This document shows positions 32,312 through 53,051 of a stretch of DNA of 64,000 bases, in pieces; position 1 is the stretch's first letter, and each line of letters begins with the position of its first letter. The stretch is taken from the IMG/VR virus record IMGVR_UViG_3300035190_001334, positions 81,467-145,466 of that record; one strand, written 5' to 3'. The DNA comes from a virus. The notes below the pieces were generated by a model, which saw nothing but the letters and a program-made list of their open reading frames with translations, made no database searches and had not been told where the DNA came from. A program made the position numbers and the translations under genes.

Positions 32312-32562
32312 AACATAGGAGCTATTGTCAGCAACCCCGCACTGAAGTGACGGGGCTTCGAGCCTAAAGCTTGGAGCCATGCTGACCAGCCTAAGTCTTA
32401 ACTGACTACGTTATTTAGGTCACGACACCTCGGAATGCTTGCTAGTTCCCCGCTCTGTCGTTTGTAATTAAACAGTTCTAAGGTCACTGGAACAGTGTTG
32501 CAAGCCTAACAAGCCTAGATAACATTGGCGAAGCAAACATTACTTTTGTAGGCGACACAACC
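32312..32562 (+). ncRNA. probable IscB omega-RNA region
   Basis: About 250 bases without a frame, directly upstream of iscB, as in known IscB loci where the omega-RNA precedes the gene. It holds strong paired elements such as CCCCG...CGGGG near 32335-32355 and several GGAGC/GGTCAC arms. By analogy the variable guide is at the 5' end, near 32312-32328. Exact ends need a covariance model. Confidence 0.6.
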
Positions 32563-47545: not shown

Positions 47546-47801
47546 TATCTATCCGAAGGAGGAGGTGCAGAAAAGGAAATTGGGTTATATTAAAGAAGAT
47601 GCAGTAATGCAGTGTAGCTAATTCAATTAAGGTTTGTTGTATTAGTGATAGGTCATCCCTAGACCGAATTACGAGATAGGGGTTGAAAACCTGAATTTTT
47701 AGTAAGTATGGAGGTGTATCTTCAAAATTGCTAAACAACTGGATATTCGAGAAATAGTCAATACTCGATTTGTGGGTTCGTTCATGCTAAAGCTATATGC
47801 G

Positions 47802-47861
47802 GTTGCTGCTAAATGCGGCGCTATACCTAAATTATAGATAAGGACATGGCTATCCAGCAAC
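47802..47861 (+). other. short tRNA-like fold
   Basis: GTTGCTG (47802-47808) pairs perfectly with CAGCAAC (47855-47861), enclosing a 5-bp arm with 7-base loop (CTATA-CCTAAAT-TATAG). It resembles a tRNA without D-arm. Confidence 0.3.
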
Positions 47862-48123
47862 GACTCCAAGGTGTAGGTGCATATCTGCACAACGTTAGTA
47901 ACTCACCAACAGTTCCCTAGCTTCTGAATTTGTGAGTAAATAAGAAGTGGTTCGGGCAAGCAAGCTCTGCATCAAGCGTCGAAAAGTGGAGGCAGTCATT
48001 AGCCTTTGGTTAGTAGAGTCAGTCAGGATTGCAATCTTGCCACTTGGTTTACATCTCCCCTCTCGTAGATAACCTCAAAGAGCGAACAGTTTGGCGCTAT
48101 AAAGTGGGAGCGCCATTTCAATT

Positions 48124-48193
48124 TGGGGAGTGGCGAAATGGTTACGCGACTGCTCAACAGCAGGACTATGTAGGTTCGAGTCCTACCTCTTCA
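48124..48193 (+). tRNA. tRNA-like gene with a 6-base anticodon loop
   Basis: 70 bases. Acceptor TGGGGAG/CTCTTCA (7 pairs incl. G-U), D-arm GCG-AAATGGTTA-CGC, T-arm GTAGG-TTCGAGT-CCTAC are normal. The anticodon arm is CTGC-TCAACA-GCAG: four pairs and a 6-base loop, where CAA would be the anticodon if base 32 is missing. U1-A72 would fit tRNA-Gln rather than Leu. Probably degenerate or unusually decoding. Confidence 0.55.
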
Positions 48194-48270
48194 ATTGCGC
48201 GAATCTACCTCACTGGAGACGGACGGGTAACACCGCCTGAAAGTGTTTGAACACTAGCGCATTCATTGAC

Positions 48271-48341
48271 TGGCGTATGTCCGACAGTTAAGGAAGTCTC
48301 CTCATAAGAGATGGTATGTTGGTTAGAATCCAACTACGCCA
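48271..48341 (+). tRNA. tRNA with CAU anticodon (Met or Ile2)
   Basis: 71 bases, complete cloverleaf: acceptor TGGCGTA/TACGCCA, D-arm TCC-GACAGTTAA-GGA, anticodon arm GTCTC-CTCATAA-GAGAT with anticodon CAT, T-arm GTTGG-TTAGAAT-CCAAC. No CCA is encoded. The U1-A72 pair excludes initiator tRNA. Met versus lysidine-Ile cannot be decided by sequence alone. Confidence 0.8.
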
Positions 48342-48385
48342 ATTGTGCTGTTCGAGTCAGATGTTGATTTACGCTAGGTAGCCAG

Positions 48386-48409
48386 TCAGGTTCGAGTCCT
48401 GAGTTCGCA
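48386..48409 (+). other. orphan tRNA 3' piece
   Basis: A perfect T-arm TCAGG-TTCGAGT-CCTGA followed by GTTCGCA. No matching 5' acceptor or D-arm is found upstream. TGCGGAG directly after pairs with it at six of seven positions, but is not followed by a D-arm, so permutation is not claimed here. Confidence 0.4.
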
Positions 48410-48450
48410 GGTGCGGAGAATCACTTTTATATTTGGTTTAGGAGGTCTTT

Positions 48451-49232: not shown

Positions 49233-50006
49233 ATGGCTAAATCAACTGCATCTGGTCTTCTTTTACATCAATTGCTTGCTATCTCTGAAGGTGTGAAATC
49301 TCGCGTCAGCAAGGCGAAGACCGAAATCTACAAAACAATCCAAAAGCGTGACCTGTTTGGAGGTTTGAGCAAAACTTATCGACCCAAAGATGAAGGTGAT
49401 GAGAAGGCTTATATCTACCCTCCCGAAAATAAGTTGGTACAGAATACTGTCCAAGAGCAAGTCACGGCATTCACTTCATTGCTAGTAGAACTTTTTGATA
49501 CAATCACAACACTCGATAAGACAAACCAAGCGGCAGTCGGTAATATTGTCATCAACGGAACTGTTATTTCCGAGAATGTTCCTGTGTCAAGTTTATTATT
49601 TCTTGAAAAACAACTGACCGACATTGTGACTTTCTTCGACTCGCTGCCCACATTGGATACCGCAGAAGAGTGGAGTATTGACCCCAACACTGGTAAGTAC
49701 GCCTCTAAAGTTCGTCGTACCAACAAGACCAAGAAAATCACTGATTGGAAGGTCATTGAAGGTACGCTGACCGACAAGCACCCTGCTCAGGTCAAAGAGT
49801 ACAGCCAAGACATCAATGAAGGTGTGTGGGAGCAAATCAGCTACAGTGGTGCGATTTACCAAACTACCAAGCAAGCACTCGTCAGTCGCGCTCAGAAGCT
49901 TCTAGAGGCTGTTGTAGTAGCAAGAGAAGGTGCGAACGCCATTGAGGTGATTCCATTCAAGATTGGAAAAGATATTACGGACTATCTGACTGCACCGTTG
50001 CAATAG
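49233..50006 (+). CDS. unknown middle protein
   Basis: 257 residues. N-terminal helix with basic residues, then VQEQVTAFTSLLVELFDTITTLDKTN and NVPVSSLLFLEKQLTDI, and a conserved-looking beta part with EEWSIDPNTGKYAS. I do not recognise the family with confidence; similar proteins of unknown function occur in other phages. It has its own promoter and terminator, suggesting high expression. Confidence 0.7.
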   Translation: MAKSTASGLLLHQLLAISEGVKSRVSKAKTEIYKTIQKRDLFGGLSKTYRPKDEGDEKAYIYPPENKLVQNTVQEQVTAFTSLLVELFDTITTLDKTNQAAVGNIVINGTVISENVPVSSLLFLEKQLTDIVTFFDSLPTLDTAEEWSIDPNTGKYASKVRRTNKTKKITDWKVIEGTLTDKHPAQVKEYSQDINEGVWEQISYSGAIYQTTKQALVSRAQKLLEAVVVAREGANAIEVIPFKIGKDITDYLTAPLQ

Positions 50007-50046: not shown

Positions 50047-50086
50047 CTTTAGGTAGATGCGGGGTAGTATGTGGGTCGAGTATATT
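50047..50086 (+). promoter_or_regulatory. middle-type promoter for the permuted tRNA genes
   Basis: CTTTAGGTAGATG, 21 bases, TATATT. Transcription would begin near 50093, just before the 3' half of the permuted tRNA. A conventional tRNA 5' half for that T-arm would have to lie inside this promoter. Confidence 0.65.
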
Positions 50087-50116
50087 GATTAAAGAGCGTA
50101 AGTTAAAGCTTATCAA

Positions 50117-50209
50117 ACACAACATTCCTAGTTCGACTCTAGGATTCCCGATTTAACGGGAGTTGGCGGAACTGGTAGACGCATTCGGATTAAAAACCCG
50201 AAGTTGTGT
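50117..50209 (+). tRNA. circularly permuted tRNA-Leu-like gene
   Basis: The 3' half comes first: ACACAAC (50117-50123, variable-arm 3' strand), T-arm CCTAG-TTCGACT-CTAGG (50127-50143), acceptor ATTCCCG (50144-50150), A. Five bases follow. Then the 5' half: acceptor CGGGAGT (50157-50163), TG, the Leu-type D-arm GCG-GAACTGGTAGA-CGC, anticodon arm TTCGG-ATTAAAAAC-CCGAA, and GTTGTGT (50203-50209). Acceptor strands pair 7/7 (one G-U) and variable-arm strands 7/7. Joined exons give about 88 bases, normal for class II tRNA. The anticodon loop has 9 bases or an A-C closing pair, so UAA is likely but not certain. Confidence 0.8.
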
Positions 50210-50283
50210 AGCTCAATCTGAAAGTGAAATTGAAGTTATTGCTCCAAGTTCATTATCAAATACTTTTCTTTGTATCGAAGTTT

Positions 50284-50381
50284 CAAACCTAACAATTAGC
50301 AATATGAGTTCGAGTCTCATTTCTGCCTTATCGTGGCAGAATGGTATATGGGTAGTGCGGCTAGTATAAAAATAAGGTTTG
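50284..50381 (+). tRNA. second circularly permuted tRNA gene
   Basis: 3' half first: TTAGC (50296-50300), T-arm ATGAG-TTCGAGT-CTCAT (50304-50320), acceptor TTCTGCC (50321-50327). A 7-base linker follows. Then the 5' half: GGCAGAA (50335-50341), TG, D-arm GTAT-ATGGGTA-GTGC, G, GCTAG (50360-50364). Acceptor strands pair 7/7; GCTAG pairs with TTAGC (one G-U) as anticodon stem. Outside it, AGGTTTG (50375-50381) pairs perfectly with CAAACCT (50284-50290), which would hold the two ends together. The anticodon cannot be assigned. Confidence 0.7.
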
Positions 50382-50428
50382 ACCACAGGATATTAAAAAG
50401 GCAAAGAGCGAAAGTAAAAATACTAAAA

Positions 50429-50459
50429 GAAGGCTAGCGTCGGATATTCGCTAGCCTTC
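50429..50459 (+). terminator. strong hairpin after the permuted tRNA genes
   Basis: GAAGGCTAGCG-tcggatatt-CGCTAGCCTTC, 11 perfect pairs. There is no T-run, so it may protect or process the RNA rather than terminate it. Confidence 0.55.
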
Positions 50460-50540: not shown

Positions 50541-51164
50541 ATGGCAGCAGCTAAAACCAAGTCCGACAACACCGACGTAGTAATTTCCTCCGCAGCAGCA
50601 GCACTTGTCAAGGCAACTATAAACATTCAAGAAGCATTTAAGTCTGTGGACAGTCTCACTGAAACCGCAGAGACATTGACTCGCGACATCGCTGGTAAGA
50701 AAGCTGAAATCGCAAGCTTGACTGAAGAATATCAGACAAGATATCGACAAGCTGAAGTTGACTTCAATCTGAAGTTGGCAGAAAAGAAGGATGCGACAGT
50801 TACTGAGTACTTGAAGTCAGTTGGTAAAGAAGCAGTCGAATCTGCAACCTACAAGGCATTGCAGACTGAACTCGTTGCAGTTAAGCAAGAACGTGATGCT
50901 GAAGTCAAAAAGGCAGTCGCAATCGAACAAAATCGTCTGATTCGCGAATACTCGGCAGAAAAGAGTCTACTCATCAGCCAAAACGAAACTGCGACCGCCA
51001 AGCAACTTGCACAAATCGAATCTCTTGTCGAACGTAATGGCGCACTCAGCAATGAAATCGCTAAGCTGTTTAGAGAAATCGAAGCTCAACGTGCTTTGAC
51101 TGCTGAAGTCGCTAAGGCATCTGCAATTGGTAATGTAAATTTCCCTACACCTAACGGTCGCTAA
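50541..51164 (+). CDS. coiled-coil protein of unknown role
   Basis: 207 residues, Ala/Glu/Lys-rich. It is mainly two long coiled coils (about 35-75 and 85-195: EIASLTEEYQTRYRQAEVD, QIESLVERNGALSNEIAKLF). Own promoter and terminator. May be a structural scaffold or a filament; no homologue recognised. Confidence 0.7.
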   Translation: MAAAKTKSDNTDVVISSAAAALVKATINIQEAFKSVDSLTETAETLTRDIAGKKAEIASLTEEYQTRYRQAEVDFNLKLAEKKDATVTEYLKSVGKEAVESATYKALQTELVAVKQERDAEVKKAVAIEQNRLIREYSAEKSLLISQNETATAKQLAQIESLVERNGALSNEIAKLFREIEAQRALTAEVAKASAIGNVNFPTPNGR

Positions 51165-52798: not shown

Positions 52799-53051
52799 GT
52801 TATTGAGATTCTAGGAGTTTCCTAGGAAAGACTTGGGTTCAATTCCCAAATAGTCCATTATCAAGGGCTATAACAGGTTCTCGATTTCAGAGGAAAGCCT
52901 AGAACACGCTGAAGTTTTATGAATGGAAGCTAGATGACACAAAAACAAATGCCAAAAACCAAATCGTTAAATTCGCCCGTAAGTCTACACCTGTAGCTGT
53001 TGCAGTTTAACCACCCGAAGACCTCGTATACTTAACGGTTGCGAGGTCTTC
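52799..53051 (+). ncRNA. ssrA: circularly permuted tmRNA
   Basis: Acceptor piece first: helix P2 strand TTCTAGG (52809-52815), T-arm TTGGG-TTCAATT-CCCAA (52833-52849), acceptor ATAGTCC (52850-52856), A. Eight bases later the coding piece starts with GGGCTAT (52865-52871): 7/7 pairs, including G3-U70, the alanine identity pair. A D-like loop and P2 strand CCTAGAA (52898-52904, perfect to TTCTAGG) follow. The tag frame runs from GCC 52951 to TAA 53010 and encodes AKNQIVKFARKSTPVAVAV. No CCA is encoded. It would rescue stalled ribosomes with SmpB. Order of pieces equals the two-piece tmRNA genes of alphaproteobacteria and some cyanobacteria. Confidence 0.88.

What the first reader, a model, noticed from the sequence alone, without database searches (positions are those of the whole stretch)
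50117..50209. Circularly permuted tRNA-Leu-like gene in a phage
Seen: T-arm and 3' acceptor strand come before the 5' acceptor strand, D-arm and anticodon arm. Two separate sets of distant strands match only in the reversed order: acceptor ATTCCCG/CGGGAGT (7/7) and variable arm ACACAAC/GTTGTGT (7/7). Rejoined length is about 88 bases, as in class II tRNA. The D-arm is a textbook Leu D-arm. A promoter occupies the place where an ordinary 5' half would have to be. Permuted tRNA genes are known from some algae and archaea; I know of none from phages or bacteria. How it would be cut and ligated is open.
Basis: partly seen in the sequence, partly recalled or inferred. Interest (0 to 1): 0.95.

Follow-up and report, generated by a model that had tools for sequence, protein, structure and literature searches.

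The report
Two-headed tRNA-mimic RNA beside DUF7873
The apparent scrambled tRNA gene is one of two tRNA-shaped modules of a single conserved noncoding RNA, built like bacterial Y RNAs and found next to an uncharacterised protein gene (DUF7873) in many phages and in Streptomyces-like bacteria, which suggests an unrecognised RNA-protein complex rather than a tRNA.

Summary
The interpretation (a permuted tRNA-Leu gene) is only partly right. The reported element is the first of TWO permuted tRNA-like domains (TLDs) in one ~330-nt noncoding RNA (about 50087-50415) of a Pseudanabaena-type cyanophage. In seven related cyanophages all acceptor pairs hold in permuted order. Across 13 TLDs 96% of cells pair, 15 of 16 pairs have double-sided changes, and the covariation score is 1.02 against 0.27 in shuffles. 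TLD2 has no anticodon arm; TLD1's is absent in Pam2 and replaced by a helix in two relatives. So this is no decoding tRNA.

The gene just upstream is Pfam DUF7873. In distant DUF7873 loci (phages of Vibrio, Rhizobium, Klebsiella, Gordonia and others; 80 bacterial loci, mostly Streptomyces and other actinobacteria) permuted TLDs lie directly downstream in 160 of 171, and upstream in 1 of 175. A shared hairpin loop (U-H-U-Y-GCUC) sits between them.

The module has the architecture of the bacterial Y RNA (YrlA) tRNA mimic, but Ro60 is absent from all six cyanophage records searched. Best reading: a double Y-RNA-like RNA forming a complex with DUF7873. Novelty: new variant of a known kind. Binding, processing and function are untested.

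The parts
49233..50006 (+). DUF7873 protein gene (257 aa), upstream neighbour and proposed protein partner
   Evidence: Pfam PF25283, 283.5 bits, E 2.1e-84; present in all six cyanophage records searched; AlphaFold pLDDT 88, no known fold match
50081..50086 (+). probable -10 box TATATT; RNA start inferred at about 50087
   Evidence: sequence and conservation; not supported by the consensus scan, so inferred only
50088..50217 (+). closing helix P1: ATT(AAA)GAGC 50088-50097 with GCTCAAT 50211-50217, enclosing hairpin H1 and TLD1
   Evidence: paired in all seven homologs, one pair changed on both sides in Pam2
50098..50113 (+). hairpin H1 GTAAG/CTTAT
50117..50209 (+). TLD1, the reported element: outer helix ACACAAC/GTTGTGT, T-arm 50127-50143, acceptor 3' strand 50144-50150, linker ATTTAA 50151-50156, acceptor 5' strand 50157-50163, D-arm 50166-50182, anticodon-like hairpin 50184-50202
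   Evidence: CM R1 41.0 bits
50221..50256 (+). central hairpin H2 with conserved loop motif TTATTGCTC (50236-50244)
   Evidence: near-invariant in cyanophages; T[ACT]T[CT]GCTC in 79 of 93 distinct double loci against 0.5 expected
50262..50415 (+). helix C2 ACTTTTCTTTG 50262-50272 with CAAAG(AGC)GAAAGT 50402-50415, enclosing TLD2 and its conserved basal internal loop (TATCGAAGTTT 50273-50283 / ACCACAGGATATTAAAAAGG 50382-50401)
   Evidence: position corresponds to GGGTCGAAG / CCACATCCG in Y RNAs of Ro60 loci
50284..50381 (+). TLD2 (not reported): helix B2 CAAACC/GGTTTG, helix A2 ATTAGC/GCTAGT in the anticodon-stem position, T-arm 50304-50320, acceptor 3' strand 50321-50327, linker 50328-50334, acceptor 5' strand 50335-50341, Gly-type D-arm 50344-50358; no anticodon arm
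   Evidence: CM R1 33.3 bits; B2 differs in sequence yet pairs in all seven (one mismatch in L015; PA-SR01 five pairs)
50430..50458 (+). terminator-like hairpin AAGGCTAGCG/CGCTAGCCTT
   Evidence: inverted repeat in sequence, different in sequence but paired in relatives

Best explanation
The element is part of a single noncoding RNA of about 330 nt carrying two tRNA-mimic modules of the bacterial Y RNA (YrlA) type. In each module the strands enter and leave where the anticodon stem would be, so the order along the RNA is T-arm, acceptor stem closed by a short loop, D-arm; this looks 'circularly permuted' but needs no ligation. The RNA is the conserved partner of the DUF7873 gene just upstream. 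Most likely mechanism: DUF7873 binds the RNA, perhaps at the conserved internal loop at the base of TLD2 and the central hairpin, in the place Ro60 takes on Y RNA. The two tRNA-shaped heads then dock one or two proteins that recognise the tRNA elbow and acceptor (candidates: PNPase as in the Ro60-Y RNA-PNPase machine, RNase P, the CCA enzyme or tRNA-modifying enzymes), tethering them to DUF7873 or gating its access. Shown: the RNA, its two modules, their conservation by compensatory change, and the tight link to DUF7873. Inferred: that DUF7873 binds it, where, and what the heads bind.
For: Covariation of the permuted core in homologs found by sequence, not structure: 96.2% of cells paired, 15/16 pairs changed on both sides, score 1.016 vs 0.265 +- 0.039 shuffled, 39-47% paired when slid. 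DUF7873 identified in all six cyanophage records. A covariance model from cyanophage TLDs alone hits, usually twice, just downstream of DUF7873 in Klebsiella, Gordonia, Arthrobacter, Rhizobium, Vibrio and Rhodococcus phages, IMG/VR contigs and actinobacterial genomes. Strict scan: 80/91 phage-type loci downstream vs 1/95 upstream, that one (L116) having the RNA upstream; 80/80 bacterial loci downstream vs 0/80 upstream. Shared central loop motif in 79/93 distinct double loci vs 0.5 in shuffles. Rfam YrlA matches TLD2 of L028, L026 and L132 at E 3e-4 to 7e-5 with the same arm order. Y RNAs at Ro60 loci are hit by both YrlA and the cyanophage TLD model, a positive control. Ro60 absent from six cyanophage records and 7 of 8 other DUF7873 phages. 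Y RNA background: PMC8394870.
Against: No RNA-seq or binding data. The window RNA itself gives no YrlA match up to E 10, and all YrlA matches found are below the 69-bit gathering score. Adjacency could reflect shared regulation rather than binding. In two genomes Ro60 lies 6-8 kb from DUF7873 (Rhizobium phage Y65; Nonomuraea G007), so the RNA might still serve Ro60 there. DUF7873 has no recognisable RNA-binding fold. CCA is encoded exactly one base after the acceptor strand in 64 of 219 distinct TLDs, which fits a processed, free 3' end better than a closed loop; some Y RNAs at Ro60 loci show it too.
Confidence: 0.6

Rival explanations
1. Two-piece processing as in permuted tmRNA: RNase P and 3' trimming cut out each linker, leaving an RNA held together by base pairs with one or two free CCA 3' ends that may be aminoacylated.
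For: CCA begins exactly one base after the acceptor strand in 64 of 219 distinct TLDs, against 0, 1, 7 and 3 at offsets 0, 2, 3 and 4; the first CCA base is C in 196 of 219. Discriminator A dominates in TLD1 and U in TLD2 among 43 double loci. The same phage carries a permuted tmRNA with an equally short linker. Permuted tmRNA is cleaved this way (PMC11915505).
Against: Cyanophage linkers do not encode CCA; linkers of 4-10 nt are tight for RNase P. The alanine signal G3-U70 is absent from the 13 cyanophage TLDs and present in only 5 of 219 TLDs. Y RNAs at Ro60 loci sometimes show the same CCA, so it could be a relic of tRNA ancestry.
Confidence: 0.18
2. It is a Y RNA in the full sense that binds a host-encoded Ro60, and DUF7873 is an accessory or chance neighbour.
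For: Same module fold and arm order as YrlA. GTCGAAG (ATCGAAG in the window) opposite CCACA at the base of TLD2 sits where GGGTCGAAG and CCACATCCG sit in Y RNAs of Ro60 loci. DUF7873 and Ro60 are 6-8 kb apart in two genomes.
Against: No TROVE in any of the six cyanophage records, in 7 of 8 other DUF7873 phages or in 7 of 12 DUF7873 actinobacteria, yet DUF7873 is next to the RNA in nearly every locus.
Confidence: 0.12
3. It is a true permuted tRNA-Leu gene: the transcript is circularised and cut to give a working tRNA, as in red algae and archaea.
For: Complete set of arms in the window, Leu-like D-arm, permuted pairing.
Against: Two tandem modules, the second without an anticodon arm; the anticodon hairpin is lost or replaced in relatives while flanking RNA is nearly invariant; irregular 9-nt anticodon loop; the same architecture recurs in distant genomes with other acceptors.
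Confidence: 0.03
4. It is a decoy that soaks up tRNA-binding host or defence factors (for example nucleases or RNase P), without a dedicated protein partner.
For: tRNA elbow and acceptor preserved in every module while the anticodon arm is not.
Against: Also present with DUF7873 in many actinobacterial genomes, and it has conserved parts outside the tRNA mimics.
Confidence: 0.07

Closest known systems
Bacterial Y RNA, YrlA (Rfam RF02553), partner of Ro60/Rsr
   Same: tRNA-mimic module with T-arm, loop-closed acceptor stem and D-arm in the same order, strands entering at the anticodon-stem position; conserved internal loop at the base of the module; found in bacteria and phages.
   Different: Two modules in one ~330-nt RNA with a conserved central hairpin; linked to DUF7873 instead of Ro60; window RNA not recognised by the Rfam model; distant homologs only below the gathering score.
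Permuted (two-piece) tmRNA (Rfam RF04321, RF01851)
   Same: Acceptor 3' strand precedes the 5' strand with a short linker; encoded CCA in many members; a permuted tmRNA lies 2.4 kb downstream in the window.
   Different: D-arm has a stem, no G3-U70, no recognised tag reading frame, two modules.
Circularly permuted tRNA genes of algae and archaea
   Same: 3' half of a tRNA-like structure precedes the 5' half.
   Different: No complete anticodon arm is conserved; no need for circularisation; embedded in a longer conserved RNA.
Pfam DUF7873 (PF25283)
   Same: The upstream gene is a clear member.
   Different: The family has no described function; no paper in the held library names it.

Membership tests
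Bacterial Y RNA (YrlA) | tRNA-mimic module: T-arm, closed acceptor stem, D-arm, entry through anticodon-stem position | tested here: met
   the TLD model also hits Y RNAs of Ro60 loci
Bacterial Y RNA (YrlA) | Rfam YrlA covariance model at or above its gathering score | tested here: not met
   No match in the window up to E 10; homologs 29-38 bits against 69. The Y RNAs of Ro60 loci fetched here also score below 69.
Bacterial Y RNA (YrlA) | Encoded beside or with a Ro60/TROVE gene | tested here: not met
   PF05731 absent from six cyanophage records; found in one of eight other DUF7873 phages
Bacterial Y RNA (YrlA) | Ro60-binding sequence in the basal stem | tested here: inconclusive
   GTCGAAG in three of seven cyanophages (ATCGAAG in the window) in the corresponding place; the Ro60 consensus itself is from memory
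Bacterial Y RNA (YrlA) | Physical binding of Ro60 and PNPase | not testable with these tools
   needs biochemistry
Permuted tRNA gene | 3' half precedes 5' half with matching acceptor strands | tested here: met
Permuted tRNA gene | Complete conserved anticodon arm able to decode | tested here: not met
   absent in TLD2 of all seven and in TLD1 of Pam2, L015, L016; irregular elsewhere
Permuted tRNA gene | Circular or ligated RNA intermediate | not testable with these tools
   needs RNA-seq
Permuted tmRNA | Alanine identity pair G3-U70 | tested here: not met
   Third acceptor pair is C-G or G-C in all 13 cyanophage TLDs; 5 of 219 TLDs overall
Permuted tmRNA | Tag-peptide reading frame ending in a stop | tested here: inconclusive
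   An open frame crosses the central hairpin but no stop is shared by the cyanophages (read)
DUF7873 (upstream gene) | Pfam score above curated cut-off 27 | tested here: met
   283.5 bits

The most novel reading that the evidence does not exclude
DUF7873 and the double tRNA-mimic RNA form a distinct class of ribonucleoprotein, separate from Ro60-Y RNA, spread across phages and actinobacteria. Its two heads are matured like tRNA to free CCA ends and are aminoacylated or held by tRNA enzymes, giving a two-headed tRNA-like RNA.
Probability: 0.2. Interest if true: 0.93.

Novelty: new variant of a known kind. Interest (0 to 1): 0.77.

Why it matters
Bacterial Y RNAs are understood almost wholly through Ro60. 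A widespread tRNA-mimic RNA with two heads, conserved with an uncharacterised protein in genomes that mostly lack Ro60, points to a second protein partner for this class of RNA, and gives DUF7873 (189 IMG/VR and 252 GTDB stretches found here) a testable role. It also explains why such loci look like permuted tRNA genes, and it supplies an experimentally easy setting (Streptomyces laboratory strains) for asking what tRNA mimicry is for.

Tried and rejected
Conventional split tRNA (5' half at 50157 with 3' half at 50321): rejected, 3/7 acceptor pairs in the window and 1-5/7 in the others except Pam2. Self-splicing permuted intron: no intron family matched by Rfam, and too little sequence outside the TLDs. 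Antisense use of the central loop: the complement is found only in the RNA's own locus plus scattered 9-mers; not pursued. Peptide tag in the central hairpin: no shared stop. Ro60 in the cyanophages: absent. DUF7873 function by PDB sequence, PADLOC, NCBIfam, PHROGs: nothing. DUF7873 fold: nothing at E <= 1e-3. The RNA in GTDB genomes by exact cyanophage pattern: none. Chance tandem-tRNA matches to the TLD model (e.g. G000 43.8-44.3 kb): recognised as ordinary tRNA clusters.

Full report
1. Where it is. The window is 81467-145466 of a 145,466-bp viral contig. Its nearest named relatives are Pseudanabaena phages PA-SR01 and Pam2. The element lies in a noncoding gap between a 257-aa gene (49233-50006) and a 207-aa gene (50541-51164).

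2. Every strand named in the finding is present. About 177 bases further on there is a second permuted tRNA-like domain (TLD2, 50284-50381): T-arm, acceptor 3' strand, seven-base linker, acceptor 5' strand and a D-arm like that of T4 tRNA-Gly. A strict pattern finds just these two in the window's + strand and none on the other strand, with 0.017 expected per 64 kb in simulated sequence.

3. Conservation. DNA patterns and blastn, which know nothing of the structure, gave seven distinct cyanophage versions. TLD1 itself comes in three forms (with anticodon-like hairpin, without it in Pam2, and with a plain helix in L015/L016) inside nearly invariant flanks. In the permuted core of 13 TLDs the T-stem and acceptor are paired in 100% of cells and all 12 of those pairs change on both sides; overall score 1.016 against 0.265 +- 0.039 in shuffles and 39-47% pairing when slid. 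The outer helix B2 differs in sequence but pairs in every version, with one mismatch in L015. The ordinary order does not pair except in Pam2, whose two acceptors are identical.

4. What it is not. TLD2 cannot decode because helix A2 fills the anticodon-stem position. TLD1's hairpin has an irregular loop and is not conserved. So a ligated tRNA is very unlikely. The alanine pair of tmRNA is absent from all 13 cyanophage TLDs.

5. The protein next door. The 257-aa gene is Pfam DUF7873. tblastn finds it in 73 phage records from Vibrio, Gordonia, Rhizobium, Klebsiella/Serratia, Arthrobacter, Rhodococcus, Pseudanabaena and Microcoleus phages, often inside tRNA clusters. A covariance model built only from the cyanophage TLDs (R1) then found permuted TLDs immediately downstream of DUF7873 in these unrelated phages, usually two about 150 nt apart. 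In 80 IMG/VR loci plus isolates, the strict pattern is met downstream in 80 of 91 loci and upstream in 1 of 95; the exception, L116, carries the RNA on the upstream side. In 80 bacterial loci, mostly Streptomyces, Nonomuraea and Actinomadura, it is 80 of 80 downstream and 0 of 80 upstream. These counts include near-identical loci and so describe breadth rather than independent events. In a sample of 150 genomes of the same phylum DUF7873 was present in 3, one of them the centre genome, so it is patchy.

6. One RNA family. In 93 distinct loci with both TLDs the central hairpin-loop motif T[ACT]T[CT]GCTC occurs in 79 (0.5 expected after shuffling), ATCRA between the TLDs in 82 (14.5) and TTAAA after TLD2 in 62 (5.5). 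All seven cyanophages carry the central motif. The flanking and central parts, and not just the tRNA shape, are thus shared.

7. Relation to Y RNA. Rfam's YrlA (bacterial Y RNA) matches TLD2 of Klebsiella, Gordonia and Nonomuraea DUF7873 RNAs at E 7e-5 to 3e-4, below its gathering score, and its consensus has the same order of arms. As a positive control, Ro60 (TROVE) loci fetched from some of the same genomes carry YrlA matches, and R1 hits the same places, often in pairs. Y RNAs are described as tRNA-like RNAs that tether Ro60/Rsr to PNPase and are modified by DusA and TruB (PMC8394870). Ro60 is nevertheless absent from six of six cyanophage records and seven of eight other DUF7873 phages tested, and from 7 of 12 DUF7873 actinobacteria. 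In two genomes DUF7873 and Ro60 lie 6-8 kb apart, which hints at a shared pathway.

8. Ends. In 64 of 219 distinct TLDs a CCA starts exactly one base after the acceptor strand; at offsets 0, 2, 3 and 4 the counts are 0, 1, 7 and 3. Among 43 double loci TLD1 mostly has discriminator A and TLD2 mostly U. Some Y RNAs at Ro60 loci show CCA as well. This leaves open that the linkers are removed and the ends mature as in tRNA and permuted tmRNA (PMC11915505).

9. Mechanism. The best-supported reading is a scaffold RNA: DUF7873 bound at a conserved non-tRNA part, with two tRNA-shaped heads presenting elbow and acceptor to tRNA-binding enzymes. The structure of the RNA and its linkage to DUF7873 are shown; binding and partners are inferred. 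DUF7873 is predicted with confidence (pLDDT 88) but resembles no solved or viral structure at E <= 1e-3, so the protein gives no direct clue.

10. Novelty. The module is of a known kind (Y-RNA tRNA mimic). The double-headed RNA and its DUF7873 association were not found in the held literature: DUF7873 appears in no paper, and the PA-SR01 and Pam2 genome papers list only ordinary tRNAs. The primary Y RNA papers are not held, so a description there or elsewhere cannot be excluded.

Noticed in passing
window 52811-53010 (+): Permuted (two-piece) tmRNA in the phage, tag AKNQIVKFARKSTPVAVAV, acceptor ATAGTCC/GGGCTAT. A strong relative lies at L016 6214-6540 with tag VNNIVSFSRKATPVAA; degenerate or missing in Pam2 and L014.
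   Followed up: partly
L015 4579-4702: A tRNA-Trp gene appears to sit inside the linker between the two halves of the permuted tmRNA (acceptor CCCGTCC ... GGGCGGG).
   Followed up: no
window about 47740-48110 (+): A second long, strongly conserved noncoding stretch shared with PA-SR01, Pam2 and L014, without an Rfam match; possibly a large structured RNA.
   Followed up: no
window 48123-48195, 48271-48342, about 48385-48413: Two ordinary tRNA genes (one with undefined anticodon, one Met) and a stray T-arm plus acceptor fragment right after that conserved stretch.
   Followed up: no
window 32327-32543 (+): HEARO RNA, 165 bits; these RNAs accompany HNH endonuclease genes.
   Followed up: no
L026 2066-2594: tmRNA (Rfam 89 bits) in Gordonia phage Phendrix, absent from the record's annotation.
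   Followed up: no
L060 1501-2226: DUF7873 open reading frame with one in-frame stop codon in an otherwise intact sequence, suggesting stop-codon reassignment or an error.
   Followed up: no
L202-L206: Ro60 loci in actinobacteria carry YrlA-type modules, often in pairs, with GGGTCGAAG ... CCACATCCG flanks.
   Followed up: partly
Nonomuraea G007 contig C11 and Rhizobium phage Y65 (MN988525): DUF7873 and Ro60 (TROVE) genes only 6-8 kb apart.
   Followed up: partly
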